Assembly: GCF_900129725.1 (NCBI RefSeq)
Contig: NZ_FQWQ01000004.1
Span: 434,001 to 498,000 of the forward strand
Direction of reading: 5' to 3'
Origin: Chryseolinea serpens
GTDB taxonomy: Bacteria; Bacteroidota; Bacteroidia; Cytophagales; Cyclobacteriaceae
Length of the DNA: 64,000 nt
The position numbers were made by a program, and so were the translations under genes. Position 1 is the first letter of the stretch; each line of letters begins with the position of its first letter. Positions 7,772 to 61,821 of the stretch are shown piece by piece. A model generated the notes under the pieces. The model searched no databases. It was not told the DNA's origin and saw nothing but the letters and a program-made list of their open reading frames with translations.

Positions 7772-8281
7772 TTACCGGGCCTTCTCCATTTGTTTGATGG
7801 CATTCCATCCTTCCGGCGTGATGCCCATGATCTCGGTGACCACGCCCAGCGTTTGATAGGTGTCGAAGAAAGCCATTCGTGCAATGGGATGGTCCACTTC
7901 GCTGATGGAGGCATAGCCTTGTTCGCGCAGCTCGCTGGTGACCCGCTCGAAACCGGCCACCGGCAAACGGAATGCCAGGTGCTGTGTGCCGCCGCCGGGA
8001 TACTTCGCGAGGTAGTCATGGAACATGCTTTGGCCGGAAAGCGGCTGGATGAGTTCGATGAACGTGCCGCCGTTATAGGTCTGCGTGGTCAGCCAGTCGC
8101 CGGCCACGACCTTGCCGTGATAGGTCATATCCAGATCCTGTGCCTGGATGTGTTCCGGTGGAGGGAAGCCAGGGATACCCAAGGCATTCGTCAGGAATTT
8201 TACGGCGGCGTGAATGTCCGGGACGACCCAACCGATTTGTGCGAGTTCAAGTCCGGCGATGGTGTTGTTGATATTGCTCAT
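7772..8281 (-). CDS. VOC (glyoxalase/bleomycin-resistance) family protein
   Basis: The 169-residue protein is one vicinal-oxygen-chelate domain with two beta-alpha-beta-beta-beta halves: LAQIGWVVPDIHAAVKFLTN, FIELIQP, then GTQHLAFRLPV and VTEIMGITPEG. The family binds a divalent metal through His/Glu residues: H in THxLAF-type positions and E in FIELIQP and VTEIMG. Members isomerise, epimerise or detoxify small carbonyl compounds; the substrate cannot be read here. The gene converges on the SnoaL-like gene. Confidence 0.85.
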   Translation of the reverse strand: MSNINNTIAGLELAQIGWVVPDIHAAVKFLTNALGIPGFPPPEHIQAQDLDMTYHGKVVAGDWLTTQTYNGGTFIELIQPLSGQSMFHDYLAKYPGGGTQHLAFRLPVAGFERVTSELREQGYASISEVDHPIARMAFFDTYQTLGVVTEIMGITPEGWNAIKQMEKAR

Positions 8282-8504
8282 GATTGCTTGCTGTTAGGCT
8301 AGTAGTTGAACAAAATTAAGACGGAAGGGTTTGTCAAATCGATGTATTTTGCGGCAATGTAGAGGTGGTTTGCGACTATTTGGATTTACAGAGAGAGGAC
8401 CTCATTGTTATATGGGGCTATTTGGACTTTCACATCGCTTAACATGCGTCAAAAGCCGCGCCGTCGTTGAACCCTCATGACGACTACTTGCAAGACACTA
8501 TACG

Positions 8505-9515
8505 TTAGACAAACGAATTGACCTTAATAACAACCTTACCTTTTGCACGACCTGTTTCTACATAAGACATCGCTTCATTCGTTTGTTCGAATGGAAACAC
8601 TTTGTCCACAACTGGTTTTATGGCGCCCGACTCTATTAATTTTGTTATTTGACTCAATTGGTCGCCTTGTGCTCTCATAAAAAGAAAAGAAAAGTTCACA
8701 CCGAGGCGCTTAGCTTTTTTTCTGATTCCGACACTCAGGAATTTCAATACTATTTTCAGGAACCAATTCGCATGAATTTCTTTCCCAAAATCAGGGTCGG
8801 GCGGCCCGGAAATAGAAATGACTTTACCCCCGGCTTTTAACACGCTCAACGATTTCTCGAGTGCCTTTGTATCTTGACTATTCAGTACTACATCGTAATC
8901 CTTTAATAGAGTTTCGAAGTCCTCTTTTTTGTAGTCGATTATGATGTCTGCGCCTAAACTTTTCACCAATTCAATATTTGCAGTACTGGTAGTGGTAGCC
9001 ACCGTTGCTCCCAAATGTTTCGCCAACTGAATGGCAAATGTACCGACACCACCAGAACCTGCTTGAATGAAAACTTTCTGCCCTTTTTTTAGATTCGATT
9101 TTTCGACAAGCGCCTGCCACGCGGTTAAACCCACCAAGGGTATAGAAGCGGCTTCTTCCATGGAAAGATTTTTAGGCTTAAGGGCAACATCATCTTCATG
9201 TATACAAATGAATTCAGCAAACGTCCCGATGCGATAGTCGGCAGGTCTTGCATAAACCTCATCGCCAACTTTGAATTTGCTGGCCTTTGAGCCGACTTTC
9301 GTTACAACACCAGACACATCATGGCCCAATGTAAACGGAGTTGAATAAGGCAAGATCATTTTGAATTCACCATTTCTGATCTTTGAATCCAAAAGGTTCA
9401 CACCCGCTGCATGTACCTGGACTAAAATGTCAGTTTCTTTTACAACGGGTTCCGCTGTTTCAATGAGTTTCAATTTTTCTTTCTTGCCGTAGCGTTGAAC
9501 AATAAATGCTTTCAT
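8505..9515 (-). CDS. Zinc-independent MDR alcohol dehydrogenase / quinone oxidoreductase
   Basis: The 336-residue protein belongs to the medium-chain dehydrogenase family: a GroES-like N-terminal half (VHAAGVNLLDSKIRNGEF) and a Rossmann domain with the NADP loop AGSGGVGTFAIQLAKHLGA. It has no catalytic zinc ligands, which points to the quinone oxidoreductase/enoyl reductase branch that reduces quinones or reactive enals. It lies 11 bp after an SDR gene, forming a two-gene operon divergent from an HxlR regulator. In known cases (QorR/QorA, YodB) HxlR proteins repress such reductases and respond to electrophiles. Confidence 0.9.
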   Translation of the reverse strand: MKAFIVQRYGKKEKLKLIETAEPVVKETDILVQVHAAGVNLLDSKIRNGEFKMILPYSTPFTLGHDVSGVVTKVGSKASKFKVGDEVYARPADYRIGTFAEFICIHEDDVALKPKNLSMEEAASIPLVGLTAWQALVEKSNLKKGQKVFIQAGSGGVGTFAIQLAKHLGATVATTTSTANIELVKSLGADIIIDYKKEDFETLLKDYDVVLNSQDTKALEKSLSVLKAGGKVISISGPPDPDFGKEIHANWFLKIVLKFLSVGIRKKAKRLGVNFSFLFMRAQGDQLSQITKLIESGAIKPVVDKVFPFEQTNEAMSYVETGRAKGKVVIKVNSFV

Positions 9516-9526
9516 TTTCTTAATTT

Positions 9527-10300
9527 CTAATGTTGAGGCAGCAATTGCTTTATATTCTTCTCCGGGTTGACCAGGCCGAAGGCCATTTTAGGAAAAAGCC
9601 TGTTGACCACATAGAGCAACTTCGTGTCGCCAACCCGGATGGTAAATTGATTTTTTTGAAGTCCTACAATAAGCTTTCTCACTAATTCTTCCGGGGTTAA
9701 TTTCTTGTCGGTTCTGCTGGCTGTCATGTCTGTCGCCACCACCGGGGGTAAAAGCTCAAACACTTTCACATTGCTCTTTAGAACCTCTAAATGTTTTCTG
9801 AGCGACTCGGTATAAAAACGCAGCGCTACTTTGGAGGCGGAATAGGTGGCTTCAATCGCTGAAGGTACATAACTAAGAATGGAAGTGGTGTTGATAATGG
9901 CACCTTCCTTTCTGGATTTCAGCATTTCCATAAAGAGATTGTTCAGGCGGATAACCCCGAAATAATTGACGTTCATTTCATGCTCGGCCTCATTTGAATG
10001 CCTTTCGTTGGCTACTCCCAAATTGGTGGAAAGGCTTAAAACACCCGCGTTGTTGTATAGAATATCGATTCCACCGAGTTCCTTGACCCGATTGAAAAGC
10101 CCTTGTGCGTCGCCGGCGTTGGCGACGTCACTTTTTATAGCAATTAAGGCGGGATATAATTTTTTCGCCTGGTCCAATTTTGCCTGATCCCTCCCGGTGA
10201 TGATCACTTTGGCACCCTTGGCTAGAAATTGCTTTGCAGCTTCGAGGCCAATGCCTGCCGTGCCGCCGGTGATCAATATTGTTTTTCCTTGTATTTCCAT
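9527..10300 (-). CDS. Short-chain dehydrogenase/reductase (DltE-like)
   Basis: The 257-residue SDR shows the cofactor loop TGGTAGIG (12-19), the NNAG motif, Ser in INTTSILS and the catalytic YSASK. The C-terminal extension with LLPPVVATDMTASR and KLIVGLQKNQFTIRVG resembles the SDRs annotated as involved in D-alanine esterification (DltE-like). It is the first gene of the operon with the MDR reductase and starts 67 bp from the nearest HxlR-type palindrome. Confidence 0.9.
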   Translation of the reverse strand: MEIQGKTILITGGTAGIGLEAAKQFLAKGAKVIITGRDQAKLDQAKKLYPALIAIKSDVANAGDAQGLFNRVKELGGIDILYNNAGVLSLSTNLGVANERHSNEAEHEMNVNYFGVIRLNNLFMEMLKSRKEGAIINTTSILSYVPSAIEATYSASKVALRFYTESLRKHLEVLKSNVKVFELLPPVVATDMTASRTDKKLTPEELVRKLIVGLQKNQFTIRVGDTKLLYVVNRLFPKMAFGLVNPEKNIKQLLPQH

Positions 10301-10367
10301 GTTTTTGATTTATATAATGTTATTTAATGTGCCGGGGTTGTTTCTTTTCGCATCATGCTGTAATTTT

Positions 10368-10417
10368 ACTTGCAAATTGCAAGTGCAAATATTGAAATTA
10401 ACTTGCAAAATGCAAGT
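10368..10417. promoter_or_regulatory. Two palindromes, probable HxlR operators
   Basis: ACTTGCAAATTGCAAGT (10368-10384) is a perfect palindrome around one central base. ACTTGCAAAATGCAAGT (10401-10417) differs at one position. Centres are 33 bp apart, about three helical turns. Both lie between the divergent SDR-MDR operon and the HxlR gene, placing them over the likely promoters of both. Confidence 0.75.
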
Positions 10418-10433
10418 GATTTATGCTATTTTT

Positions 10434-10850
10434 ATGAAGAAGGCAAAAAAGAGATCAGACTGCCCGGTGAGTACCTCGCTCGATATCTGGGGAGATAAGT
10501 GGTCGCTGTTGATCATCAGGGACCTTATGTTTGCAAAAGAATGCACCTATGGCGATTTTCTAAAAGCCCCGGAAGGCATAGCGACGAATATTTTGGCCTC
10601 GAGATTAGAAGTATTGGAGGAAAACCGGATGATCGAAAAATTAGATCACCCGGATAGCAGGGCGAAAGTACTCTATAGACTAACCAAAAAAGGAATAGAC
10701 TTATTGCCCATCATGATCGAGATAAACTTATGGGCGGAAAAGTATTTCCCTATACCGGCCGACAGAAAAGAAATGTTGAAAGAGGTGAAAAAAGATAAGA
10801 CTGCATTTATTAAATCCAAGACCAAGGAACTGGAAAGACAAGGTGATTAG
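10434..10850 (+). CDS. HxlR-family transcriptional regulator
   Basis: The 138-residue winged-helix protein has the HxlR pattern: SDCPVSTSLDIWGDKWSLLI near the N-terminus with Cys10, then FLKAPEGIATNILASRL as recognition helix region and LYRLTKKGIDLLPIM in the wing. In characterised members (YodB, QorR, HypR) the equivalent N-terminal Cys senses quinones, diamide or disulfide stress. The ATG at 10434 is preferred because the upstream in-frame ATG at 10410 lies inside the second palindrome. It is divergent from the SDR-MDR operon, its likely target. Confidence 0.92.
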   Translation: MKKAKKRSDCPVSTSLDIWGDKWSLLIIRDLMFAKECTYGDFLKAPEGIATNILASRLEVLEENRMIEKLDHPDSRAKVLYRLTKKGIDLLPIMIEINLWAEKYFPIPADRKEMLKEVKKDKTAFIKSKTKELERQGD

Positions 10851-10877
10851 ACAACGGCTAAACAAAGATAGTGCTAA

Positions 10878-11432
10878 ATGACAACCCCATTTAAACTAAC
10901 CATCCACATGGTCTCCAGCCTCGACGGGCTCATTGCCAAAAAGGACAACAGCGTTTCGTGGTTTGACACCCCTGACCACTACGAGAAAGGAGCCGGTGAA
11001 CCAGACGTAGCAGCATTTCTCAAAACAATAGATTGCTATGTAATGGGCTCCCGCACCTACGAACACGCCCTGGAACTTTCAAAGTCCTATGGATGGGCTT
11101 ATGGAGATGTACCGACCCTTGTGGTAACGCACAGAAACCTACCCGTCGACAGATCGAGCATTGAAACGTATTCCGGCGACCTGAACAAACTTGTGAATGA
11201 ACGACTAAAACCAAAGTACAAGAATGTCTGGCTCGTAGGCGGAGCCATGCTCGCCAAAGATTTCATTCGCGCAAAATTGGCGGATGACATAAGGTTGTCG
11301 GTTCTGCCCATCATTCTGGGTGACGGCCTGCTGTTCTTCGATCACATCGGACAGGAGCAAGCCTTGCACCTGAAAGACGTGACTGCCTACAAAAATGGGA
11401 TGGTAGAACTGTGGTACGAAATAAAAAAATAA
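10878..11432 (+). CDS. Dihydrofolate reductase-like (RibD C-terminal) protein
   Basis: The 184-residue protein has the RibD-C/DHFR-like fold: HMVSSLDGLIAKKDNSVSWF, CYVMGSRTYEHAL (NADPH-binding loop), NVWLVGGAMLAKDFI and ILGDGLLFFDH. It lacks the deaminase half of RibD, so it is a stand-alone reductase of unknown substrate, common in Bacteroidota as a YwjB/YyaP type. It starts 27 bp after the HxlR gene on the same strand. Confidence 0.88.
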   Translation: MTTPFKLTIHMVSSLDGLIAKKDNSVSWFDTPDHYEKGAGEPDVAAFLKTIDCYVMGSRTYEHALELSKSYGWAYGDVPTLVVTHRNLPVDRSSIETYSGDLNKLVNERLKPKYKNVWLVGGAMLAKDFIRAKLADDIRLSVLPIILGDGLLFFDHIGQEQALHLKDVTAYKNGMVELWYEIKK

Positions 11433-11464
11433 TAGCGGCGACGCATGCGATAAAAGCTTACCCT

Positions 11465-11845
11465 ATGGAAAACAGAAAAAATCATAACACACCCAAAGTG
11501 CCGCGGATGTCGGAACTATTTCCCCAGGCGGTCATTGCCGACAAATTTGTCTTTCTATCCGGAACTCCCGGCCTCAATCCGTCGACGGGAAAACTTAGCG
11601 AAAGTTTTGAAGAACAAACCAGACAAGCGTTCTTAAACATAAAAACCATTCTGGAAGAAGCCGGAAGCGGACTTGAAAAAATTGTGAAGACGACGGTCTT
11701 TATGGTTTCCGGGAATGACTTTGCTTTGCTGAACAAAGTTTATAGTGAGACCTTTCCCGCCAATGCCCCGGCTCGCAGCGCTCCCCAGGTAATGCCATTT
11801 CCCGGAGGCATTTTAGTGTCGGTGGAGTGCATCGCACTTTTGTAG
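11465..11845 (+). CDS. RidA/YjgF family protein
   Basis: The 126-residue protein (ATG at 11465, 32 bp after the reductase gene) carries the RidA signatures: VFLSGTPGLNPSTGKL, EEQTRQAFLNIKTILEEAGS, KTTVFM, FPANAPARSAPQV and VSVECIALL. The Arg in PARS matches the residue that binds the carboxylate of imine intermediates in RidA. RidA hydrolyses reactive enamines/imines released by PLP enzymes. Several family branches have lost this activity, so the enzymatic role is inferred. Confidence 0.9.
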   Translation: MENRKNHNTPKVPRMSELFPQAVIADKFVFLSGTPGLNPSTGKLSESFEEQTRQAFLNIKTILEEAGSGLEKIVKTTVFMVSGNDFALLNKVYSETFPANAPARSAPQVMPFPGGILVSVECIALL

Positions 11846-11955
11846 TGCGTCTCGCAAAAAAAGCCACACAATACGTAAACAAAATCCCAAAAGTAAATTT
11901 CCTTCTATACTTGGTAATCTGAGTTGTATAGCTTGTCTGAACGAATTTCGACGCT

Positions 11956-12951
11956 ATGGAAAGCCAAGCGACATTGATCATCACCAAGGGGGAAGTGGAG
12001 GGGCTTTTACACATCCAGGAATGCATGGATGCCGTAGCCCGCGCCTTTCAGTTACAGGCGGAAGGAAAAGCTTCGCCGCCCAAAATACTCGGTCTTCATG
12101 TACCGCTGGGCGGCTTTCATATCAAAGCTGGTGTACTGGATCTTGGGCGGTCTTACTTTGTAGCAAAAACAAATGCAAACTTCCCGGACAACCTGAAAAG
12201 CAATGGCCTTCCCACAATACAAGGTGTTATTGTCGTTTGTGACGCTGCCAATGGAAAGGTGCTTGCCTTGATGGATTCGATTGCCATAACCGTCATTAGA
12301 ACAGGGGCTGCGACAGGTGTAGCCGCAAAATATCTGGCGAGAGAAGACGCCCGGGTTGTAACGATCTGTGGATGCGGAAATCAAGGTAAGATATCATTGA
12401 AGGCCATGGTGGCCGTGCGTTCCGTCGAGAGGGTTTATGCATACGACATCGACCCAACACAGAAAGTTAAATTTGCCAACACGATGACTAAACAATTAAG
12501 CGTTCCGGTCATACCTGTCGATGATCTCCGTGCCGCCGTAAGGCAGAGCGACATCTGTGTGACCTGCACTACCTCTAAAGAGCCTTTCTTGTACAAAGAA
12601 GATATTAAACCGGGAACATTCATTGCGGCTGTGGGGGCCGATAGTGAGAACAAGCAGGAGTTGCATCCTACTTTGGTGGCAGCCAGTAAATTGGTGGTTG
12701 ATCTGCTGGAGCAAAGTGCAACTATCGGCGAACTTCATCATGCGGTTGAATGCGGAATTATGACGCGTGACCATGTTCATGCTGAATTGGGTGAGATCAT
12801 TGCCCATCACAAAGCAGGGCGAACGTCAGATGATGAGGTTATTGTCTTTGATAGCACCGGGACAGCCTTACAGGATGTAGCGGCTGCGGCTATTGTTTAT
12901 GAAAAAGCGATGCGATCTGGCATTGGGCTGAACCTGAACTTAGCGAGCTGA
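11956..12951 (+). CDS. Ornithine cyclodeaminase / mu-crystallin family protein
   Basis: The 331-residue protein has a substrate domain with FHIKAGVLDLGRSYFVAKTN and DSIAITVIRTGAATGVAAKY, and a Rossmann domain with VVTICGCGNQGKISLKAM. It ends with VFDSTGTALQDVAAAAIVYE. This matches the family that includes ornithine cyclodeaminase, alanine dehydrogenase, ketimine reductase and opine-precursor synthases such as SbnB. Which reaction applies cannot be read from sequence. The neighbouring RidA gene, which handles imines, makes a ketimine or amino-acid substrate plausible (inference). Confidence 0.9.
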   Translation: MESQATLIITKGEVEGLLHIQECMDAVARAFQLQAEGKASPPKILGLHVPLGGFHIKAGVLDLGRSYFVAKTNANFPDNLKSNGLPTIQGVIVVCDAANGKVLALMDSIAITVIRTGAATGVAAKYLAREDARVVTICGCGNQGKISLKAMVAVRSVERVYAYDIDPTQKVKFANTMTKQLSVPVIPVDDLRAAVRQSDICVTCTTSKEPFLYKEDIKPGTFIAAVGADSENKQELHPTLVAASKLVVDLLEQSATIGELHHAVECGIMTRDHVHAELGEIIAHHKAGRTSDDEVIVFDSTGTALQDVAAAAIVYEKAMRSGIGLNLNLAS

Positions 12952-13290
12952 CGATGAAGAGATTTTGAGGACAGCTAAACCGAAACATGGCATTAAACAT
13001 CTTGAATAAAGCCTGTCCTACTATACGATCATAACCCGATTTCATTTCCAGAAGTTAAACTACCTGTAGAAAACGCGCCCCATTGTCCCCCAATTTCCAA
13101 AATGTCTCCACACACCATCAGGCCTGTCCACCCCATGTGGCTTTACTGCTTTCGTTACCTACCCTAGGATCGGTTAGGCTAGCCCATGGGTAATCCCAAT
13201 CCCTAGATTTTCGGATCATTTTTTGATGTGAGGTCAGCGCGTTACACCAAATTCATTTAACTTAGGTTTTTGAGTTTTTTTGAATGCCCT
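12952..13290. other. Intergenic stretch upstream of the glycan synthase pair
   Basis: No reading frame is supported. A GGACAG...CTGTCC inverted pair with a long loop lies just after the upstream stop. The rest presumably holds the promoter of the glycosidase-synthase operon, but I see no clear motif. Confidence 0.4.
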
Positions 13291-14598
13291 ATGCCATTGA
13301 AGACCCTTCTTGTTTTTGCTTCTATTGGTCTGATTGTGCTGGCCTGTTCGGACCGGAAGGAATACAATGCCACAGGTAGAGTCCATGTGGTGCGTGACGG
13401 CGATCGATTTACACTGATCCGCGACCAGAAGCCGTTTGTCATCAAGGGTGTTGCTGGCTTTACCCACCTGAAAGAACTCCACGACGCCGGCGGCAACACC
13501 ATCCGAACGTGGGACACCACCAACCTTCAAAACATCCTCGACAGTGCCGAGCGCTATCACATCGCCGTCATGGCCGGTCTTCCGCTGTACAATTCAAATC
13601 ACGTGAGTGAATACTACAACGATCCGTTGGCCATGAAGAACCTGCAACAAAAAATGGAAGCGGTGGTGGATCGTTACAAAAATCATCCGGCCTTGTTGAT
13701 GTGGTGCCTGGGGAATGAGTTGCACTATTTCTATGAGCCAGAGGAGGACTTTTTCACCGCCTATAATACCCTCTTGAAAATGATCCACCGGAAGGACCCT
13801 GATCACCCGGTGACCACGGCACTGCTGAACTTCGGCAGAAAAAATATTTACCACGTTCAAAGTAAAGTTCCCGACCTGGACCTCATTTCCATCAATACCT
13901 ATGGAAGAATTTCCTCTTTGAAGGAGGATATTGAAGGCTTCAGCTGGTATTGGGATGGTCCCTTCGTGGTGGGTGAATGGGGGATCAATGGATACTGGGA
14001 ATGTGACAGTACGGCCTGGGGTGCGCCGATCGAAGACACCAGCACCAAAAAGGCCGAGCAGTACAAATCGGTCTATGCCACGCAAATGCCCTATGACAAT
14101 CCGCGCTACCTGGGCTCGATGGTATTCTACTGGGGATTTCAGCACGAGAAAACACCGACGTGGTTTAGTATGTTTTCGGATGACGGGGCGAAGTCTGCTT
14201 CGATTGGGTCGCTCACTGAAATATGGAATGGTCCGTCATCTGTTCATCCCGGACCGCCCTTGGAGTATATGCTCGTCGATCAAAAAGGCGCGCGCGACAA
14301 TCTCCTCTATCAGCCGAACACGGTTCACAAAGCGGAGATCATATTAAAGCAACCTGCCGGGGGCCTGCGCCTGCGATGGGAGGTTCTTCCGGAAGATTGG
14401 TATAAAGAACAACGGGATGATTCAAACAAGAACAAGATAACACCACCTGCATTGGATTCTTTGTTTTCGGACGTGGATGGGCTCTCCGCGACTTTTCGCG
14501 CCCCCGAAACCGAAGGCCCCTACCGGGTCTATTGCTGGATCTATGACGCCTATGGAAATTTTGCTTCGGCCAATACACCTTTTTATGTTGTGAAATGA
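13291..14598 (+). CDS. Lipoprotein glycoside hydrolase (GH2/GH5-like clan-A TIM barrel)
   Basis: The 435-residue protein from the ATG at 13291 has a lipobox (GLIVLAC, Cys19). Its TIM barrel resembles the catalytic domain of GH2: FVIKGVAGFTHLKELHDAGG, NTIRTWDTTN, then LLMWCLGNELH with the acid/base Glu143, and DGPFVVGEWGINGYWE with the nucleophile Glu229. A beta domain follows from about residue 335. Both catalytic residues are present, so it is likely active, retaining, and anchored in the periplasm or at the surface. Its stop overlaps the start of the synthase gene by 4 bp, implying coupled translation and a shared polysaccharide. The substrate is unknown. The upstream in-frame start at 13270 would spoil the signal peptide. 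Confidence 0.85.
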   Translation: MPLKTLLVFASIGLIVLACSDRKEYNATGRVHVVRDGDRFTLIRDQKPFVIKGVAGFTHLKELHDAGGNTIRTWDTTNLQNILDSAERYHIAVMAGLPLYNSNHVSEYYNDPLAMKNLQQKMEAVVDRYKNHPALLMWCLGNELHYFYEPEEDFFTAYNTLLKMIHRKDPDHPVTTALLNFGRKNIYHVQSKVPDLDLISINTYGRISSLKEDIEGFSWYWDGPFVVGEWGINGYWECDSTAWGAPIEDTSTKKAEQYKSVYATQMPYDNPRYLGSMVFYWGFQHEKTPTWFSMFSDDGAKSASIGSLTEIWNGPSSVHPGPPLEYMLVDQKGARDNLLYQPNTVHKAEIILKQPAGGLRLRWEVLPEDWYKEQRDDSNKNKITPPALDSLFSDVDGLSATFRAPETEGPYRVYCWIYDAYGNFASANTPFYVVK

Positions 14599-17500
14599 AG
14601 AACCATACGCCCGTAAAAGCTCCTTCGCGAATAGAAAGAATAATGCTGCAGCTGATGATTGTCATGGGCGTGTTGAGCATGCTCTTTTTTGTTTACAATC
14701 TCTTGCGGCCGGAGTATGTCGGACACGTTGTTTTTTACTGGCTGTTGATTTTGGCCATCGCGTTCGGCTGTCTGAAAGTTTTGCACGAGTGGTATCATTA
14801 TTTTTTTATTCGCGTGCCGGAAAAACCCGATACGCAACAAAATTTTACGGTCGATATCCTCACCACTTTCTGCCCCGGCGAGCCCTATGAAATGATCGAG
14901 GAAACGCTTCGCGCCATCCAGGCGATCCGTTATTCGCACACGACATATCTGGGAGATGAGGGCAATGATCCGTATATCAGGGAGCTGTGTGCCTCCCTTG
15001 GCGTAATACATGTGACCCGTGCCACGCGGGAAAATGCGAAAGCGGGAAATATCAACAATATCCTGAAACAGGCGACGGGCGACCTCTGCGTGGTGCTCGA
15101 CCCGGATCATGTGCCTGTTCCGGAATTTTTGGATAGCGTCGTTCCTTATTTCAGCGACGGGCAGATCGGCTATGTGCAGGTCGTGCAAGCCTACAGCAAT
15201 CGCGATGAGTCACTGGTGGCCAAGGGCGCGGCGCAGCAAACGTTTCAGTTTTATGGCCCCATGATGATGACCATGAACCAGTATGGGACCGTGATGGCCA
15301 TTGGAGCCAACTGCACCTTTCGGAGAAGTGCCCTCGATTCTATTGGCGGTCATGCAGCGGGACTTGCCGAAGACATGCACACGGCGATGCAATTGCATGC
15401 CAAAGGTTGGCGGTCGGTCTATGTGCCGGAAGTACTGACCCGGGGATTGGTTCCCGCGACATTGTCGGCCTACTACAAACAGCAACTGAAGTGGGCGCGA
15501 GGAACGTTGGAATTGCTGTTTGTTACCTATCCCAGGTTATTCGGGAAATTTACCTGGCGACAGCGTCTGCATTATGGCACATTGCCCTTTCACTATTTTT
15601 CGGGTGTTATCTTTCTGATCAATTTTGTGGTGCCGGTGGTGTCGCTCGTGCTGGGAATCATTCCATTGAAGGTGGACTTGGTCACCTTTGCCATGATGGG
15701 TTTTCCCTTTACGGTTTCGGTCATGATGATCAGGCAATACGTGCAGCGCTGGGTGATGGAGGAAGAGGAGCGAGGCTTTCACGTAGTGGGAGGCATTCTG
15801 CTGATCGGTACCTGGTGGGTTCATTTGGTGGGCCTGGTCTATACCATCGTGAGGAAAAAGGTTCCTTATATTCCCACACCCAAGGAGTCCACCACGCGCG
15901 ACAGCTGGTCGATATGCATTCCCAACATGGTGGTGGGACTGTTGTCGTTGTTCGCGATCGTGTATGGACTTTACAACGACTGGAATCCGTATTCAATTTT
16001 TATGGCGGGCGTAACCAGTCTTAACGTCTTGTTCATGGCGTTTACGGTGGCCGCATCGCGGCAGCGACCGGTTGCACACCGGCGTCCGTCTTCAGGGGTG
16101 GTCCGGATCATGGCTGGATATTTTCATGCGGGTAAGAGACTGTTCTGGCTTCTCCGGCATGAGCTCTATTTCTTTATGCGTGCAGTGGCATTGCCGGCAA
16201 TACTATTGGCCGTGGCGCTTACCGGGTACGTGGTGTATCGCGGACAGCAGATGCCCAATGTATCTTTTGTGTACGCCGCCCCGGCGAAAGTTTTTTACAA
16301 TGGGATTTTTCAGCCGGCAAAGGATGATGGACTCACCTCCTTAAAGGACGTTGCAGCATTTGAAAAGTTTGCCAGCGTCCATTTTGATTTGCTTTCCTTT
16401 TATATCCCATGGGGCGTGGATTCAAGTTCTTTTCCCGACGCCGTAGCAATGCAGGCCGTGTACGATCGTCAGTCAATACCGTATATCACGTGGGAGCCTT
16501 GGGTAAGTCATTTTCCGGTGTCGGAAAATCATAACGAGTTGCGAATGGAGCAAAAAGCGTTCGCGAATATCAGCATGGGGTTGTTTGATGATTATGTCCT
16601 GAAATTCGCGTCACAGCTCAAATCGTTTCATCAGCCGGTGTTTCTCAGGTTTGCGCATGAGTTTGATAACCCCGCTTATCCGTGGTCGGCGACCGGACAG
16701 AACACAGCAGCGGAATTCAGGCAAGCCTGGATCCATGTGTTCAACCTGTTTCAATCGGCGGGAGCTACTAATGTGATCTGGGTGTGGAGTCCGTGGAAGG
16801 CCGAGAATGCCATGGCCTTCTTTCCGGGTGCAGCATATGTTGATTGGCTTTCGATAACGGGTCTTGACTATTCGTTGCCTGGAAAATCCCCTGTTCCATT
16901 TGCTTCACTCTATGCTTCCTTCCATGCATTGGAATTATTTCGTTCCGGCGTGCCAGTGATGGTTTCGGAGATGGGCACATTGAATGGTCCCGAGCAGAAG
17001 AAATGGTTCGCGGATGCACGGATGTCGATCGACACTGCTTTTAATGAGATCAAAGGATGTGTCCTTTTCAATTCAGCATTTGACGACAATGTGGTCCCTG
17101 GTGTAACCGCCGATCTGAAGAAGCTCGATTGGACCGTGCATCATGCGCTGGCAAAAACGCCAACGGCAGCGAACCAACGTGACGTGAACAGGATACTGCG
17201 GATGCAGTGGGAACCAAAACAAACGCGTCAACCCGATAGGTCATTTCTGGGTGCGCTGCGTGGAGTGAATTTTTCGAAAGGGAAAAACTGGTTCAAGAAT
17301 TTCCATGCGCTCACCCGGAATGAATTGAATGCCGACATGGAGAGGATGAGATCCCTTGGCATCACAACGATCAAACGGTTTGGGCCGGGAGTTTACGACA
17401 AAAATATACTCCACATGGCCGCGGAGACCGGGATGAAAGTCCATTACAATTTCTGGATTGATGACCGGCTGAACATATTGGCCGACACGGCGAAGTTGGA

Positions 17501-18386
17501 TGCCCTCAAAACGGAAATTATCGAAACCGTTGACCGGTATAAAAATGATCCCGCCATCATCGCATGGAACCTGGACAATCTTTTGTGGAAGCGCTTAAAA
17601 GAGCGCTATCCCAAGCCGGAACTCTTTTTCCATCAGGCACGCTACATGCATTGGCTGAATGACGTCGTTCAATCCATCCTGAAAGTCGATCCCCATCATC
17701 CCGTAACGCTTGATCTGCCATTTTCCGAAACGATCAAACACGATCTCATGCTCCTCCAGGCGAATGTCAACGGCGTGGATGCGTTTGGTGTAACCCTTGG
17801 TGAAGAGGATGACCAGATAGACATCTTGAAGGGTGTCGAAGGTCCGTTGTTTCTGAGTGCGGCACCGGTGTCGGTCTTGCGTCAATTGGAAAACCGGTTC
17901 GATGGCGGATATGTTACGGAGTGGCAAGATTTGCAGGAGAGGAACATTGTCACCCTAAACGGCTTGGAGGATCATTGGGGACGACCTAAGCCTGAATACT
18001 TTCAGTTGGGCCGGCTTTGGGCGCATGCGACGGACGGATACGCGCCGGATACGTTTCAAATTAGAATTCTTCGGCCTTCGATCGCGACAATTCCGACTCA
18101 TCAGCTTACCTACTATGCAATCATCAAAGAGGGCGAGACGTGGAAAACCGCGGATGCGTTAGGTACGCCGCTTAATTTTGAGTGGTATCTTATCAAAACG
18201 GATGAATTCGGCAACAACGCGTATCTCAGAAAACTGGGGACGGGCGCAAGCATTACACTGGAGATCCCGGAGGATCCACTAACCTTCCGTCTATACCTGA
18301 TCGGTGAAAAGGACGGCAATATTCATACTGCAATCACCCCATTGAATACCCCGCTGATCAGCCGGTCAAAAAAAATGCCGCTATAA
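14595..18386 (+). CDS. Fused GT2 polysaccharide synthase, GH26-like hydrolase and degenerate GH module
   Basis: The protein has 1263 residues. After two membrane helices (about 16-36, 44-62), a processive GT2 domain shows LGDEG (119-123), the DPDH metal motif (169-172), AED (258-260) and QQLKW (296-300), where K replaces the usual R of QxxRW. Several helices follow (about 332-548). Residues about 565-850 form a GH26-like barrel with RFAHEF (acid/base E689) and MVSEMG (nucleophile E792). Residues about 883-1145 form a second barrel similar to the upstream lipoprotein, but its catalytic positions read WNLDNL (L996) and PLFLSAA (A1089), so both glutamates are lost. A beta tail ends the protein. 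It probably polymerises and exports a beta-glycan and trims or binds it. Membrane topology, and hence the side of the GH modules, is inferred. Confidence 0.88.
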   Translation: MKNHTPVKAPSRIERIMLQLMIVMGVLSMLFFVYNLLRPEYVGHVVFYWLLILAIAFGCLKVLHEWYHYFFIRVPEKPDTQQNFTVDILTTFCPGEPYEMIEETLRAIQAIRYSHTTYLGDEGNDPYIRELCASLGVIHVTRATRENAKAGNINNILKQATGDLCVVLDPDHVPVPEFLDSVVPYFSDGQIGYVQVVQAYSNRDESLVAKGAAQQTFQFYGPMMMTMNQYGTVMAIGANCTFRRSALDSIGGHAAGLAEDMHTAMQLHAKGWRSVYVPEVLTRGLVPATLSAYYKQQLKWARGTLELLFVTYPRLFGKFTWRQRLHYGTLPFHYFSGVIFLINFVVPVVSLVLGIIPLKVDLVTFAMMGFPFTVSVMMIRQYVQRWVMEEEERGFHVVGGILLIGTWWVHLVGLVYTIVRKKVPYIPTPKESTTRDSWSICIPNMVVGLLSLFAIVYGLYNDWNPYSIFMAGVTSLNVLFMAFTVAASRQRPVAHRRPSSGVVRIMAGYFHAGKRLFWLLRHELYFFMRAVALPAILLAVALTGYVVYRGQQMPNVSFVYAAPAKVFYNGIFQPAKDDGLTSLKDVAAFEKFASVHFDLLSFYIPWGVDSSSFPDAVAMQAVYDRQSIPYITWEPWVSHFPVSENHNELRMEQKAFANISMGLFDDYVLKFASQLKSFHQPVFLRFAHEFDNPAYPWSATGQNTAAEFRQAWIHVFNLFQSAGATNVIWVWSPWKAENAMAFFPGAAYVDWLSITGLDYSLPGKSPVPFASLYASFHALELFRSGVPVMVSEMGTLNGPEQKKWFADARMSIDTAFNEIKGCVLFNSAFDDNVVPGVTADLKKLDWTVHHALAKTPTAANQRDVNRILRMQWEPKQTRQPDRSFLGALRGVNFSKGKNWFKNFHALTRNELNADMERMRSLGITTIKRFGPGVYDKNILHMAAETGMKVHYNFWIDDRLNILADTAKLDALKTEIIETVDRYKNDPAIIAWNLDNLLWKRLKERYPKPELFFHQARYMHWLNDVVQSILKVDPHHPVTLDLPFSETIKHDLMLLQANVNGVDAFGVTLGEEDDQIDILKGVEGPLFLSAAPVSVLRQLENRFDGGYVTEWQDLQERNIVTLNGLEDHWGRPKPEYFQLGRLWAHATDGYAPDTFQIRILRPSIATIPTHQLTYYAIIKEGETWKTADALGTPLNFEWYLIKTDEFGNNAYLRKLGTGASITLEIPEDPLTFRLYLIGEKDGNIHTAITPLNTPLISRSKKMPL

Positions 18387-18600
18387 AACCAGGAAGGCGA
18401 CCTGCTAACGTCATTTTTGGCGTCAAAATTTAGGGATCGATCGCGAATGGGGCATGACACAAAATTCGGGTTGGCATCACAACGATATGTCCAGACGCAT
18501 AATTGCCTGGTGTAGGATAAACATGCAATTTTTTTGTTTTCAAATTTGTGTTATGTGTTGAATTTTTCTGACATTTATATACCCGATAACTGTAACGAAT

Positions 18601-19047
18601 ATGCAAATGGCACTAGAACAGAGAGACCTGGATTCAATCGATCGGCTTCTGAAATCACATCTTGAGCCGATCCGGAAAAACATTGGCAAAATAGAAACGG
18701 ACATTGTTTCGATGCAGGAAGACATGGACGGATTGAAGACGGGCTTTGTTTCGATGCGGGAAGACATTGACGGATTGAAGACGGGCTTTGTTTCGATGCG
18801 GAAAGACATTGACGAATTGAAGGCGGGCTTTGTTTTGATGCGGAAGGATATTGACGAATTAAAGACGGGCTTTGTTTTGATGCGGAAAGATATTGACGAA
18901 TTGAAGACGGGCTTTGTTTTGATGCGGAAAGATGTAGACGAAATGAAGGGCGACCTTTCCCTACTGGCCCGCCTCAACCAACTTGACGAAATCCGGAAAG
19001 ATGCAAGGTTAAGAGTTCTCTACGCAAGCGACACCAAAGAGGCGTAA
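18601..19047 (+). CDS. Coiled-coil protein built from 14-residue repeats
   Basis: The 148-residue protein has no signal peptide. Residues 34-117 are six repeats of a 14-residue unit such as GFVLMRKDIDELKT, two heptads long, with hydrophobic residues spaced as in a long coiled coil. A charged N-terminal helix precedes the repeats, and LSLLARLNQLDEIRKDARLR follows. No family is recognised; similar repeat proteins act as structural or scaffolding rods. The reverse strand is also open here only because the repeat has a biased codon pattern. Confidence 0.75.
   Translation: MQMALEQRDLDSIDRLLKSHLEPIRKNIGKIETDIVSMQEDMDGLKTGFVSMREDIDGLKTGFVSMRKDIDELKAGFVLMRKDIDELKTGFVLMRKDIDELKTGFVLMRKDVDEMKGDLSLLARLNQLDEIRKDARLRVLYASDTKEA
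18700..18951 (+). repeat. Six tandem 42-bp repeats inside the coiled-coil gene
   Basis: Six in-frame 42-bp units, most beginning GGCTTTGTTT and ending near GAAGACG. Central copies differ by only a few bases, the outer ones by more. The unit length (14 codons) keeps the heptad register, so copy number can change without frameshift. Confidence 0.9.
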
Positions 19048-32576: not shown

Positions 32577-34082
32577 ATGCGAAAAGTGAAAACGTCAAAA
32601 AAACCAAATAGTAAGTTCCCAAAGTCATTAACAGGCATACAGGGCCTGGATGACATTACCCAGGGTGGTTTTCCAAAAAATCGCCCCACGCTGTTGTTGG
32701 GTAACACAGGCTGTGGGAAAACGATCATGGCGATGGAATTTATTGTGAATGGCATCGTGATGTTTAACGAACCCGGCGTGTTTATGGCCTTTGAAGAAGA
32801 CACGGACGAACTCGTCGTAAACGTGGAGTCGGTGGGCTACAACTTAAGCAAGCATCTTTCGGAAAACAAAGTATACCTGGAGCATGTACGCGTTAATCGT
32901 GATGAAATCTCGGAAACGGGCAATTATAGTATTGAAGGTTTGTTTGTGAGGATGGGTCGGGCCATCGACAAAGTGAACGCCAGGCGCGTTGTGCTGGATT
33001 CGTTGGATACGTTGTTTTATGGACTCGATTATCATACACTTCGCTCGGAATTGAAAAGACTTTTTTCTTGGTTAAAGCAACGAAAGGTAACCGCCATCAT
33101 TACGGCGGAACTCGGCGATGGCTACCTCACCCGCCACGGTCTGGAGGAATATGTAGCCGATTGCGTTGTTGTTTTAGACAACCGGGTGACTAACCAAATC
33201 GCCACGCGGCGGCTGCGTATCGTGAAATATCGCGGCTCTGTTCATGGCAATAATGAGTACCCGTTTATCGTCGATGAAAAGGGAATCACTGTTTTTCCCA
33301 TCATCAGCGAGGCGTTCCAACAGAAATCAAGTACAAAGCGGATTTCATCCGGCCTTGCCGATTTGGATGACATGTTGGGGAAAAATGGATTTTACGAGGG
33401 GAGCAGCGTTTTGATATCGGGTACGGCCGGCACGGGAAAAACAAGCTTGGCGGCCTCGTTTGCTTATAGCGTTGTTCGTGACAAAAGTCGTTGTCTCTTC
33501 TGTGCATTCGAAGAAGCGCCCAACCAGGTGATCCGGAACATGGAATCTATCGGATTTCGCTTGGGGCCCTTTATCGAGTCTGGAATGCTGACGTTCTATT
33601 ACTCCCGGCCCTCGCTACAAAATCTTGAATTGCATTTTATCGCGATCAAGAAGATTATCACCGACCTGAAGCCCGTGGTGGTTATTCTTGATCCCATTAC
33701 CAATTTAATGACCGAGGGGCCCAACAGCGATATCAGGTCCATGCTAACCCGTTTTGTTGATTTTTTGAAAACGCAACGCATAACCGTCATGTTTACTGCG
33801 GCCATCACCGTGGGGTCGATAGAGCGAAACCCCAGCGATGAAGGCATCTCGTCGATGGTAGACACCTGGATAATGGTTCAGGATATTGAGGTGGATGCCG
33901 AGCGGACACGGAGCTTGTGCGTCATGAAATCGAGGGGCATGCACCATTCCAATGAGGTGAGGAGATTTGTCATTTCAGGAAAGGGAATCAGTTTAGCGCC
34001 GATTGTTAGGAGTAAAAAAGACCTTCTGTCGGAAGCGAAAAGAACGGCGCGTGAGCATGGGAATATATCCACATCGAAATAA
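32577..34082 (+). CDS. kaiC: KaiC-family double ATPase
   Basis: The 501-residue protein has two RecA-like domains. CI has Walker A GNTGCGKT (42-49), catalytic glutamates in AFEED (E73/E74) and Walker B VVLDSLD (D141). CII has GTAGTGKT (282-289), AFEEA (E312/E313) and VILDPI (D372). The segment aligned to the cyanobacterial KaiC phosphosites (Ser431/Thr432) reads GISSMVD, so S425/S426 could be phosphorylated. It likely forms a hexamer whose autophosphorylation is read by the neighbouring kinase. kaiB follows after 92 bp; there is no kaiA, as is normal outside Cyanobacteria. An oscillator role is not demonstrated by sequence; a stress or timer role is equally possible. Confidence 0.93.
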   Translation: MRKVKTSKKPNSKFPKSLTGIQGLDDITQGGFPKNRPTLLLGNTGCGKTIMAMEFIVNGIVMFNEPGVFMAFEEDTDELVVNVESVGYNLSKHLSENKVYLEHVRVNRDEISETGNYSIEGLFVRMGRAIDKVNARRVVLDSLDTLFYGLDYHTLRSELKRLFSWLKQRKVTAIITAELGDGYLTRHGLEEYVADCVVVLDNRVTNQIATRRLRIVKYRGSVHGNNEYPFIVDEKGITVFPIISEAFQQKSSTKRISSGLADLDDMLGKNGFYEGSSVLISGTAGTGKTSLAASFAYSVVRDKSRCLFCAFEEAPNQVIRNMESIGFRLGPFIESGMLTFYYSRPSLQNLELHFIAIKKIITDLKPVVVILDPITNLMTEGPNSDIRSMLTRFVDFLKTQRITVMFTAAITVGSIERNPSDEGISSMVDTWIMVQDIEVDAERTRSLCVMKSRGMHHSNEVRRFVISGKGISLAPIVRSKKDLLSEAKRTAREHGNISTSK

Positions 34083-34174: not shown

Positions 34175-34504
34175 ATGACAATTTCAAAAAGGAAGCCCAA
34201 AAAGGAAAACGTTAAGGCGAAGGCAGACGCCCCGGGCAATAAATATGTTCTCCGGCTATTTGTTACCGGCATTTTACCAAACTCAACGCAGGCTATTATA
34301 AATGTGAACAAGATTTGTGAGAAGTACCTGAAAGGAAGATATGATCTGGAGATCATCGATATTTATAAACAGCCCTTTTTTGCGCTTCAGGAAGGTATCG
34401 TGGCAGTGCCTGTTTTGATAAAGAAATTCCCGTTGCCCGAGGAAAGGGTGATTGGAGATTTGTCGGATACTGATAAAGTTTTGAATGGACTGCATCTTGT
34501 GTAA
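34175..34504 (+). CDS. kaiB: KaiB-family protein
   Basis: The 109-residue protein has a Lys-rich N-terminal tail of about 22 residues and then the KaiB thioredoxin-like/fold-switching domain: YVLRLFVTGILPNSTQAI, YLKGRYDLEIIDIYKQP and GIVAVPVLIKKFPLPEERVI, followed by GDLSD. KaiB binds KaiC CI in its rare fold state in cyanobacteria. It lies between kaiC and a histidine kinase; the kinase's probable ATG is 14 bp after the kaiB stop. Confidence 0.93.
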   Translation: MTISKRKPKKENVKAKADAPGNKYVLRLFVTGILPNSTQAIINVNKICEKYLKGRYDLEIIDIYKQPFFALQEGIVAVPVLIKKFPLPEERVIGDLSDTDKVLNGLHLV

Positions 34505-34517
34505 TGAATTCAATGCC

Positions 34518-35804
34518 ATGTTAGTAAAGACAACGGATCAAGAGGTCGCAGCGCTGAAAAAAGAGGTGGAAAGCCTCCGAGAGCAGTTGCGACTGGCCAG
34601 GCAGTCGAGTGATGCCATTCGGGCCGGAGATATTGACGCCCTGGTAATTGGCAACACGGAGAAGTTTAAAGTTTACACGGAAAAGACATCCGACAAGATC
34701 TACCGCATTTTAGTGGAAAGAATGTATGAGGGGGCCGTCACGCTTATGGGTGATGGCGCAGTGCTATATGGCAATTCCGCTTTTGCCAACATGGTGAATA
34801 TTCCTTTGGAAAAATTGGTGGGGACAAAGTTCAGAACCTTGATCGGTTTTTCAAGAAAGAAGTGGGATGCTTTGGTTAAGCAAAGCAAGAAAAGGGTAAT
34901 GAACGAAGAATTGCTTCTACTCGCCCATGAGGGCAAGACCACGCCCGTTTTACTGTCCATGAATGCGTTATCCATCGATGACCAACATGTTTTAAGCGTC
35001 ATCGTCACCGACCTCACGATTCATAACAAAAACCAGGCAGAACTGAAAAACAGAACGGAGCAACTGGAACAAAAAAATGTAGAACTCGAGGACGCCAATT
35101 TGGATTTAACGGCTTTTACCTATGTATCAAGCCATGACTTACAGGAACCGCTCCGTAAAATCCAAAATTTTGTAAGCTGCATACTCCGGGACGATGAAAA
35201 TAATCTATCGGAAAGCGGGAAGCGGTATTTTGATAAGATTAGCCAATCCGCCCTGCACATGCGCACCCTCATTCAGGATTTGCTACTTTATGCGGAGACA
35301 AAGAATAGCGAGCGAAAGTTTGAGCTTACAGACCTGGAAACCATTGTGGATGACGTTAAAAAAGAGCTTGAGGATGTTATTCAGGAAAAGAATGCAACGA
35401 TAGAAACCAGCCCTATGTGTGATGCGAATATTATCCGATCGCAGTTTCGTCTGCTTTTTCAGAACCTTATTAGCAACTCGATCAAATTCGTGAAGCCTTC
35501 CACGGCGCCCCACATTAAAATAGCGAGTGAAGTGATACGATGGAGTAAGCCCAACGGCTTGAAACTCGAACCGCATAAGGACTACTGTCATATCACCTAT
35601 ACGGACACCGGTATTGGCTTTGACCCGCTCTATAAAGACCGGATTTTCGAAGTGTTTCAGCGCCTTCACAGTCAGCACGAATATAAAGGAACGGGGATCG
35701 GCCTGGCGATCTGCAAAAGAATTGTTGAAAATCATCATGGGATAATTTTTGCTTCAGGCCAACTGAACGTTGGAGCGCGATTTGATATTTATATCCAGGC
35801 TTAA
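34518..35804 (+). CDS. PAS-domain histidine kinase of the Kai cluster
   Basis: The 428-residue soluble kinase (ATG at 34518; an earlier ATG at 34485 would overlap kaiB) has a coiled coil with AIRAGDIDALVIG (about 33-45), a motif I know from PAS kinases beside kaiC. A PAS domain (about 62-168) follows. The dimerisation domain has VSSHDLQEPLRK (phospho-His206), and the ATPase domain has LFQNLISNSIKF, DTGIGFDP and GTGIGLAICKRIV. It lacks the KaiB-like sensor domain of SasA, so contact with KaiC would be through PAS or coiled coil. The probable partner is the receiver protein at the cluster start. Confidence 0.92.
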   Translation: MLVKTTDQEVAALKKEVESLREQLRLARQSSDAIRAGDIDALVIGNTEKFKVYTEKTSDKIYRILVERMYEGAVTLMGDGAVLYGNSAFANMVNIPLEKLVGTKFRTLIGFSRKKWDALVKQSKKRVMNEELLLLAHEGKTTPVLLSMNALSIDDQHVLSVIVTDLTIHNKNQAELKNRTEQLEQKNVELEDANLDLTAFTYVSSHDLQEPLRKIQNFVSCILRDDENNLSESGKRYFDKISQSALHMRTLIQDLLLYAETKNSERKFELTDLETIVDDVKKELEDVIQEKNATIETSPMCDANIIRSQFRLLFQNLISNSIKFVKPSTAPHIKIASEVIRWSKPNGLKLEPHKDYCHITYTDTGIGFDPLYKDRIFEVFQRLHSQHEYKGTGIGLAICKRIVENHHGIIFASGQLNVGARFDIYIQA

Positions 35805-44714: not shown

Positions 44715-44753
44715 GTGTATAATGTTTGATCGATTTTTCATAAACAGAATTCG

Positions 44754-58340: not shown

Positions 58341-58375
58341 CGTTTCCGTACACGGAGCCACCGTGTGCGGAAACG
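58341..58375. promoter_or_regulatory. 35-bp hairpin between LacI and SusC genes
   Basis: CGTTTCCGTACACGG (58341-58355) and CCGTGTGCGGAAACG (58361-58375) pair at 14 of 15 positions around AGCCA. Each arm contains a shorter symmetric core (TCCGTACACGGA). Seven T follow after a 6-bp gap, so both LacI operator and leader attenuator are possible. Confidence 0.6.
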
Positions 58376-58475
58376 AAATGCTTTTTTTCTTGCGCTTTAC
58401 ATTTCCGCCATCTACCTTAGCATTAGGCTGGCACCTCAAATCGGGGTGTTTTATTTAAAACCTAAACCTAGACCT

Positions 58476-61793: not shown

Positions 61794-61821
61794 TCCATCC
61801 AACCAACGAAATCATTAGCAT

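What the first reader, a model, noticed from the sequence alone, without database searches (positions are those of the whole stretch)
14595..18386. One polypeptide joins a GT2 polysaccharide synthase to two glycosidase-type modules
The 1263-residue protein has a membrane GT2 synthase with DPDH, AED and QQLKW motifs, a GH26-like module with both glutamates (E689, E792), and a second TIM-barrel module. Cellulose and alginate systems use separate synthase and hydrolase proteins. Fusing synthase, hydrolase and a third barrel fixes the stoichiometry and position of trimming, and a coupled lipoprotein glycosidase gene precedes it. The product could be a mannan- or glucan-type polymer, but that is inference.
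Basis: partly seen in the sequence, partly recalled or inferred. Interest (0 to 1): 0.7.

Follow-up and report, generated by a model that had tools for sequence, protein, structure and literature searches.

The report
Sugar-chain synthase fused to glucan cutter
This bacterial gene makes one membrane protein that appears to build a glucose chain inside the cell and to carry, on the outer face of the same membrane, one chain-cutting module with its catalytic residues in place and one without, a layout found in many related bacteria whose product has not been tested.

Summary
The 1263-residue ORF is uninterrupted and joins a BcsA-like GT2 synthase, a GH26 module with E689 and E792, and a second TIM barrel. 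It is not an assembly join: the 79 named loci fetched all encode the same fusion (one cut by a contig end) beside the same upstream glycosidase gene.

Tools change the interpretation. (1) The GH26 module is closest to lichenase CtLic26A (profile E 2e-42; other GH26 entries 1.7e-11 or weaker), favouring a glucan over mannan. (2) The upstream lipoprotein is GH158, an endo-beta-1,3-glucanase family, with both catalytic glutamates in 86 of 86 proteins. (3) The third module has the GH158 fold. In the window and most aligned relatives its acid/base glutamate is gone, so it is probably a glycan-holding pseudoenzyme; 11 of 100 aligned fusions keep it.

Best explanation: a beta-glucan (1,3 or 1,3;1,4) synthase that threads its chain past its own periplasmic trimming or transferring enzyme. 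Synthase-glycosidase fusions are known (Pseudomonas GH17-GT2 'Orphan'/NdvB; tunicate CesA-GH6); this is a new, widespread variant with other glycosidases and shuffling domains. The product is untested.

The parts
13291..14598 (+). Partner gene: GH158-family lipoprotein (ATG at 13291; ORF opens at TTG 13270), TIM barrel plus C-terminal Ig-like part; predicted retaining endo-beta-1,3-glucanase type
   Evidence: Profile of 44 family members hits GH158 structures 9oro (E 9e-101) and 6pal (7e-95); lipobox-like LIVLAC in the sequence; upstream of the fusion in the 79 named loci
13717..13719 (+). Glu of the WCLGNE motif, predicted acid/base of the GH158 partner
   Evidence: Aligned with the GNE of 9oro/6pal; N-E acid/base E137 in BuGH158 (PMC7157763); Glu in 86 of 86 lipoproteins
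13975..13977 (+). Glu of the VVGEWG motif, predicted nucleophile of the GH158 partner
   Evidence: Aligned with 9oro/6pal; Glu in 86 of 86
14595..18386 (+). Fusion protein, 1263 aa: GT2 synthase, predicted periplasmic GH26, GH158-fold pseudoenzyme
14595..16055 (+). BcsA-like GT2 synthase with two N-terminal and about five later membrane or interface helices (aa 1-487)
   Evidence: CelA model TIGR03030 166 bits, below its 699 cut-off; best PDB relatives BcsA 5ej1/4hg6; model best fits E. coli BcsA 9b8v (Foldseek E 1e-25); hydropathy
14955..15494 (+). Synthase motifs DEG (aa 121-123), DPDH (169-172), ED (259-260), QQLKW (296-300; Lys in place of the usual Arg)
   Evidence: E122, D125, DPDH, ED and QQ[LI]KW in 88 of 88 fusion proteins, D121 in 87 of 88
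15861..15884 (+). VPYIPTPK (aa 423-430), likely counterpart of the BcsA gating loop FxVTxK
   Evidence: phmmer alignment to 5ej1; Y425, P427, T428, K430 in 88 of 88; FxVTxK from PMC6821405 passages
16056..16220 (+). Basic loop (aa 488-523) and one extra membrane helix (aa 524-542) that would put the C-terminal half in the periplasm
   Evidence: Hydropathy; mean 7.7 K+R against 1.7 D+E in the loop (aa 488-528) over 88 proteins; helix 501-551 in the model
16290..17144 (+). GH26 module, lichenase-like (aa 566-850)
   Evidence: Profile A2 against CtLic26A E 2e-42, next other GH26 1.7e-11; Foldseek 2bv9/2vi0 TM about 0.8 on the target
16659..16661 (+). E689, predicted acid/base of GH26
   Evidence: Glu in 84 of 88; both Glu in 79 of 88
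16968..16970 (+). E792, predicted nucleophile of GH26
   Evidence: Glu in 81 of 88
17244..18383 (+). GH158-fold pseudoenzyme (barrel about aa 884-1145, Ig-like part to 1263)
   Evidence: Foldseek hits BuGH158 6pal (2e-15) and GH158(Pro) 9p25/9p26 over barrel and Ig part; weak profile hits, 9oro 7.6e-8
17580..17582 (+). L996, position of the lost acid/base Glu
   Evidence: Glu at this column in 2 of 88 and in 9 of 12 further proteins
17859..17861 (+). A1089, position aligned with the nucleophile Glu of L033
   Evidence: Column holds Glu in 21 of 88, of which 2 also keep the acid/base; the alignment is loose here

Best explanation
The gene pair is a beta-glucan biosynthesis unit. The cytoplasmic GT2 domain polymerises glucose from UDP-glucose and its membrane helices pass the chain across the inner membrane, as in BcsA (fold and motifs shown; sugar and linkage inferred). 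An extra membrane helix carries the C-terminal half into the periplasm (predicted), next to the channel exit (inferred). There the GH26 module cuts or transfers the emerging chain. The GH158-fold module, which in the window's branch has lost its acid/base, most likely holds the chain, and the co-translated GH158 lipoprotein makes the beta-1,3-specific cuts. The likely product is a short, released or remodelled beta-1,3 or mixed 1,3;1,4 glucan, not a cellulose fibre.
For: GT2 fold and closest relatives are BcsA, with DPDH, ED and QQ[LI]KW in 88 of 88. GH26 is lichenase-like by profile and fold, with both Glu in 79 of 88. [quoted passage not shown] In a sister set of fusions the fused GH158 module itself keeps both catalytic Glu (9 of 21 full fusions of the order sample, plus L033 and L035), which ties GH158 chemistry to the synthase. 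The 79 named loci hold fusion plus upstream GH158; for 80 fusions there, 78 gaps are within 60 bases and 37 are the 4-base overlap. GH26 can leave the fusion: in 6 of 6 loci where it is absent or a remnant (L136, L137, L145-L148), a separate tandem-GH26 gene lies next door, against 15 of 74 named fusions with intact GH26. In five loci synthase and GH26 are separate adjacent genes (L034, L040, L138, L161, L162). The own genome has no BcsA above the family cut-off.
Against: No product, donor sugar or enzyme activity has been measured. Catalytic GH26 is not universal: 9 of 88 fusions lack one or both Glu, and only 3 of 6 such named loci have the extra GH26 gene; five GT2 proteins with a short tail have no GH26 gene in about 10 kb (L149-L153). 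The synthase clade is apart from BcsA and from the protein taken as BgsA, so linkage cannot be read from the tree. No PgaA- or BcsC-type exporter recurs near the fusions, while SusC-like genes do in 18 of 90 loci and SusD-like in 11, which would also suit a catabolic reading. The system is patchy: of five genus mates searched one has it. The 6 of 6 count comes from related genomes and is not independent. The position of GH26 relative to the channel exit was not measured.
Confidence: 0.6

Rival explanations
1. The fused barrels are transglycosidases rather than hydrolases and make a cyclic or branched periplasmic beta-glucan, as proposed for the Pseudomonas GH17-GT2 protein.
For: The closest described architecture is interpreted that way by its authors (PMC10237404); GH158 and GH17 are both clan GH-A (GH26 recalled); no PgaA- or BcsC-type exporter recurs near the fusions.
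Against: GH17 is absent here and module order is reversed; nothing in the sequence separates transfer from hydrolysis.
Confidence: 0.25
2. The synthase makes a beta-1,4 or mannose-containing polymer and the GH26 module is a mannanase-type trimmer.
For: The Pfam GH26 family holds mannanases (recalled); GT2 is closest to cellulose synthase; a mannosyltransferase, PcManGT, is among sequence and fold hits.
Against: The GH26 profile hits the lichenase at 2e-42; entries named mannanase come at 6e-9 or weaker, and 6hf2, labelled only GH26 and recalled as a mannanase, at 1.7e-11. A GH158 partner in the 79 named loci points to beta-1,3-glucan.
Confidence: 0.12
3. The glycosidase modules are catabolic or anchoring add-ons and do not act on the synthase's own product.
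For: Some lineages have lost GH26 catalysis or the whole module without losing the synthase; SusC-like genes lie in 18 of 90 loci and SusD-like in 11.
Against: Recurrent linkage of GT2 with GH26 and GH158 in fused and unfused forms; in the window the nearest SusC/SusD-like pair is about 25 kb away (name recalled).
Confidence: 0.08
4. The fusion is an assembly artefact.
For: None found.
Against: Same fusion in 79 of 79 named loci and an 80% identical copy in a second genome of the genus.
Confidence: 0.01

Closest known systems
Pseudomonas BcsA-like 'Orphan'/NdvB protein (GH17-TM-GT2), PMC10237404 (abstract, outline and section 20 read)
   Same: One membrane protein with a cytoplasmic BcsA-like GT2 and a periplasmic clan GH-A beta-glucan enzyme
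   Different: Glycosidase is GH17 and comes before GT2; no GH26 or GH158-fold module is described in what I read, nor a GH158 partner gene
Tunicate cellulose synthase CesA-GH6, PMC6523144 (passages read)
   Same: C-terminal glycosidase domain after the last membrane helix of a GT2 synthase
   Different: GH6, animal, cellulose; a single glycosidase domain
Bacterial cellulose synthase BcsA
   Same: GT2 fold, membrane channel, D,D,D motifs, gating-loop-like segment
   Different: No PilZ hit and no BcsB-type recurrent neighbour; 166 bits against a 699-bit family cut-off; QQLKW instead of QxxRW; separate clade
Mixed-linkage glucan synthase BgsA of Sinorhizobium meliloti
   Same: GT2 without PilZ (PMC5567048 passages); possible product class
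   Different: HlyD-like neighbour and C-BgsA tail; the row taken as BgsA groups with BcsA rather than with this clade. That row's identity is recalled: the record carries no annotation
CtLic26A (GH26 lichenase) and BuGH158 (GH158 endo-beta-1,3-glucanase)
   Same: Closest or near-closest solved relatives of the GH26 module and of the partner lipoprotein, catalytic Glu aligned
   Different: Those are degradative enzymes (BuGH158; CtLic26A recalled); here they sit with a synthase

Membership tests
GT2 processive beta-glycan synthase | GT2 domain and D, DxD, (T)ED motifs inside a membrane channel protein | tested here: met
GT2 processive beta-glycan synthase | QxxRW motif | tested here: inconclusive
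   QQ[LI]KW in 88 of 88: Lys replaces Arg; 29 of 29 reference or outgroup GT2 rows scanned had Q..RW, two of those rows being the same protein
BcsA cellulose synthase | NCBIfam equivalog TIGR03030 above cut-off | tested here: not met
   166 bits against 699.1
BcsA cellulose synthase | PilZ domain and BcsB gene | tested here: not met
   No PilZ in the Pfam scan; in the window the neighbours are the GH158 gene and a small repeat ORF, and no BcsB-type gene recurs in 6 or more loci
BgsA mixed-linkage glucan synthase | Same GT2 clade and HlyD-like BgsB gene | tested here: not met
   The row taken as BgsA (recalled identity) groups with BcsA, 96/97, apart from the fusions; the window's upstream gene is GH158
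GH26 | Pfam GH26 above cut-off, two catalytic Glu | tested here: met
   41.4 against 20.2 bits; E689 and E792
GH26 | Activity on lichenan or mannan | not testable with these tools
   Needs enzyme assay
GH158 (partner lipoprotein) | Profile match, N-E acid/base and nucleophile Glu | tested here: met
   residues from PMC7157763 passages
GH158 (third module of the fusion) | GH158 fold | tested here: met
   Foldseek 6pal, 9p25, 9p26
GH158 (third module of the fusion) | Acid/base and nucleophile Glu | tested here: not met
   Window has L996 and A1089; 11 of 100 distinct relatives aligned keep the acid/base
Pseudomonas GH17-GT2 Orphan/NdvB family | GH17 domain before the GT2 domain | tested here: not met
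   No GH17 hit; glycosidase modules follow GT2

The most novel reading that the evidence does not exclude
A distinct, widespread Bacteroidota and Balneolota class of beta-glucan synthase in which one polypeptide polymerises, exports, holds and cuts its chain: a GH158-fold module, live in one branch and dead in the window's, receives the strand from the channel, the fused GH26 sets where it is cut or re-joined, and the live GH158 lipoprotein releases a defined beta-1,3 or 1,3;1,4 oligo- or cyclic glucan, a product that the papers found here do not describe for these bacteria.
Probability: 0.35. Interest if true: 0.75.

Novelty: new variant of a known kind. Interest (0 to 1): 0.58.

Why it matters
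It would give Bacteroidota and Balneolota a beta-glucan synthase with its own editing enzymes built in, and make the general question of why polysaccharide synthases need hydrolases testable on one protein. The natural variants (GH26 fused, dead, separate or absent; GH158 module live, dead or absent) are ready-made comparisons. It also warns that GH26 and GH158 genes counted as fibre-degrading enzymes in Bacteroidota genomes can belong to biosynthesis.

Tried and rejected
Single-sequence scan of genome contigs gave no relative; the alignment scan found 405, of which only the best 80 were kept. No similar DNA in plasmids. Reading the linkage from the GT2 tree: rejected, since branches are long and NodC and one Agrobacterium row are outliers; curdlan synthase CrdS and the Romboutsia synthase were not placed, as I had no sequence of either. 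A crude lipobox search fitted 50 of 86 partner proteins and probably picked some wrong cysteines; not used beyond the window protein. A recurrent PgaA- or BcsC-type exporter near the fusions was not found among gene clusters shared by 6 or more of 90 loci. Literature: six searches aimed at the fusion or its parts showed no paper on a GT2-GH26 or GT2-GH158 protein; for most hits only the listing and start of abstract were seen, and subscription papers are not held. Mannan as product was considered and ranked low.
Full report
Observation. ORF 14595-18386 encodes 1263 residues without interruption. Pfam gives GT2 at 100-303 and GH26 at 667-762, and nothing for the third module. NCBIfam gives only sub-threshold synthase hits, best TIGR03030 at 166 of 699 bits. 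The upstream ORF ends in TGA overlapping the fusion's ATG. The genome is 8.36 Mb in 10 contigs and carries one copy.

Conservation. A search of the own genome and 38 relatives with the whole protein finds an 80% identical copy in one of five genus mates (the other four have no match or weak GT2 matches only) and long relatives in some further genera; most of the 29 of 39 tallied matches are weak GT2 hits. In named genomes an alignment search finds 405 relatives among 467 pattern hits; the best 80 give 79 loci, a sample biased towards the window's architecture, and the rest were not examined. The 79 loci all hold the three-part fusion (L066 cut by the contig end; L042 has two copies) and a partner GH158 gene upstream on the same strand (split into two ORFs in L119; shortened near contig ends in L066 and L070). 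The 80 fusions there are labelled 76 Bacteroidota and 4 Balneolota. In an even sample of the phylum, 16 of 395 genomes have a relative at E 1e-60, and in the order 63 of 341; these counts include the other architectures below.

What each part is. Synthase: best relatives by sequence and fold are BcsA structures. E122, D125, DPDH, ED, QQ[LI]KW and Y-P-T-K of the gating-loop-like segment are in 88 of 88 proteins, D121 in 87. The 88 are the window, 7 related-genome proteins and 80 from named loci; unfused L034 and L040 and broken L039 were left out. The tree keeps the 22 fused synthases used together (83/98) and BcsA with the row taken as BgsA together (96/97); unfused GT2s of L034 and L040 are separate, the root is only at the midpoint, and long branches leave the sister group open. 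GH26: CtLic26A by profile (2e-42; next other GH26 1.7e-11) and by fold; both Glu in 79 of 88. Partner lipoprotein: GH158, both Glu in 86 of 86; L070, L119 and L039 were left out of that count for length. For BuGH158 the authors state that Ala mutants of N136, E137 and E220 lost activity (data not shown) and that laminarin was the favoured substrate (PMC7157763 passages). Third module: GH158 fold with Ig-like part. At the acid/base column Glu stands in 2 of 88 (L033, L035); two proteins (L037, L038) have no such module and L109 has a gap; the preceding Asn is kept in 75 of 88.

The third module is live in another branch. I read all 21 full fusions of the order sample (window, L032, L036 and L163-L180). 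Nine (L165-L173) have both the N-E acid/base and the xEFG nucleophile in the third module; twelve, the window included, lack the acid/base. Six of L163-L180 (L174-L177, L179, L180) repeat named records, judged by equal contig lengths, so 12 are new and the distinct set is 100, with 11 live modules. Eight of those nine loci also have the GH158 lipoprotein gene, six divergent and two downstream; none was seen in L173. In a tree of 26 third modules and 31 lipoproteins, made before those were read, the two sets lie on opposite sides of one branch (SH-aLRT 100), which fits one old origin of the fused module; L033 and L035 branch outside most others. So the order of events may be live fused GH158 first, loss of catalysis in the window's branch later (inference).

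Topology. Two hydrophobic helices precede GT2; after it come segments at 338-356, 361-379, 397-415, 438-456, 468-486 and 524-542. The loop before the last one is basic in the family. With the BcsA core ending in the cytoplasm (recalled), one more helix puts GH26 and the third module in the periplasm. The models are confident (546-1263: pLDDT 87.8, pTM 0.86; 1-1180: 86.6, 0.76).

Architectures. In the order sample, by stretch of the profile covered, I sort the 63 genomes as: 21 full fusion, 23 GT2 plus GH26 only, 4 GT2 plus third module with GH26 absent or a remnant, 5 GT2 with a short tail, 7 unfused GT2 of about 540 aa, and 3 broken, split by contigs or fragmentary (G028, G501, G541). From this sample and I read 45 loci. 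The six loci of both samples that lack GH26 in the fusion (L136, L137, L146-L148) or keep a remnant (L145) have a separate tandem-GH26 gene adjacent in 6 of 6. In 18 such genes of the named set the C-terminal GH26 keeps both Glu in 18 of 18 and the N-terminal one keeps the nucleophile in 0 of 18. Where the fused GH26 is intact, 15 of 74 named fusions have the gene nearby; where it is dead, 3 of 6. Fisher's test of lost-or-dead against intact gives p 3.5e-4, but the loci are related and flanks differ. In L149, L150, L151 and L153 the synthase stands alone with a divergent GH158 gene; L152 has neither partner in 10 kb, and L139 has a synthase without either. In L034, L040, L138, L161 and L162 the GT2 and GH26 are adjacent separate genes without GH158 in the stretch read; in L034, L040 and L138 a TPR protein precedes them, that of L040 with a sub-threshold match to the PgaA export porin. 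GH158 is thus the most constant partner, GH26 the next.

Own genome. No separate tandem-GH26 gene, no other GH158 of comparable score, and no synthase above the cellulose cut-off, at the thresholds used.

Mechanism. Shown: BcsA-like synthase, GH26 with catalytic residues, GH158-fold module without them, overlapping GH158 gene. Inferred: UDP-glucose, 1,3 or 1,3;1,4 linkage, periplasmic placement, action on the nascent chain, and binding by the third module. Precedent: the Pseudomonas GH17-GT2 protein, where authors propose that the chain passes through the membrane to the GH17 cleft and is cyclised (PMC10237404 abstract and section 20), and tunicate CesA-GH6 (PMC6523144 passages). For an Actinoplanes EPS cluster with a separate GH26 gene the authors know of no characterised Wzx/Wzy cluster involving GH26 (PMC13390465 passages).

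Novelty. Known kind (synthase joined to glycosidase), new variant: different GH families, module order, a GH158 module that is live in one branch and dead in another beside a live GH158 gene, and GH26 fused in some loci and separate in others. Searches did not show it in print within the held library.

Noticed in passing
window 18601-19047 (+): Small ORF right after the fusion with head-to-tail repeats of about 14 residues (MRKDIDELKTGFVL), overlapped by an open frame on the other strand (18540-18977); probably a coiled-coil repeat protein.
   Followed up: no
window 40727-42905 (+): A molybdenum-hydroxylase-like protein (name recalled) appears as two overlapping ORFs in different frames (40727-41692 and 41628-42905), which looks like a frameshift.
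   Followed up: no
window 42987-48221 (-) and 58365-63423 (+): Two SusC/SusD-like gene pairs (name recalled from sequence features), not adjacent to the fusion.
   Followed up: no
L055 11774-13480, L064 11778-13475, L065 11732-13438, L136 6491-8179 and others (18 in the named set): Tandem-GH26 protein with an N-terminal hydrophobic stretch next to the synthase locus: C-terminal module with both Glu in 18 of 18, N-terminal module without nucleophile in 18 of 18.
   Followed up: yes
L165-L173: Fusions of about 1290-1335 aa whose GH158 module keeps both catalytic Glu (9 of 9), unlike the window's.
   Followed up: partly
L034 6038-10475, L040 566-4804, L138 3684-8198: Three-gene unfused version: TPR protein, GT2 of about 535 aa, GH26 of about 380 aa; the TPR protein may be an export component.
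   Followed up: partly
L039 (G028) 7956-13489: Fusion and partner gene both broken into several ORFs in this single-contig genome; decay or sequencing error not told apart.
   Followed up: no
window 32577-34082 (+): KaiC-like ATPase followed by a PAS histidine kinase (34485-35804); names recalled.
   Followed up: no
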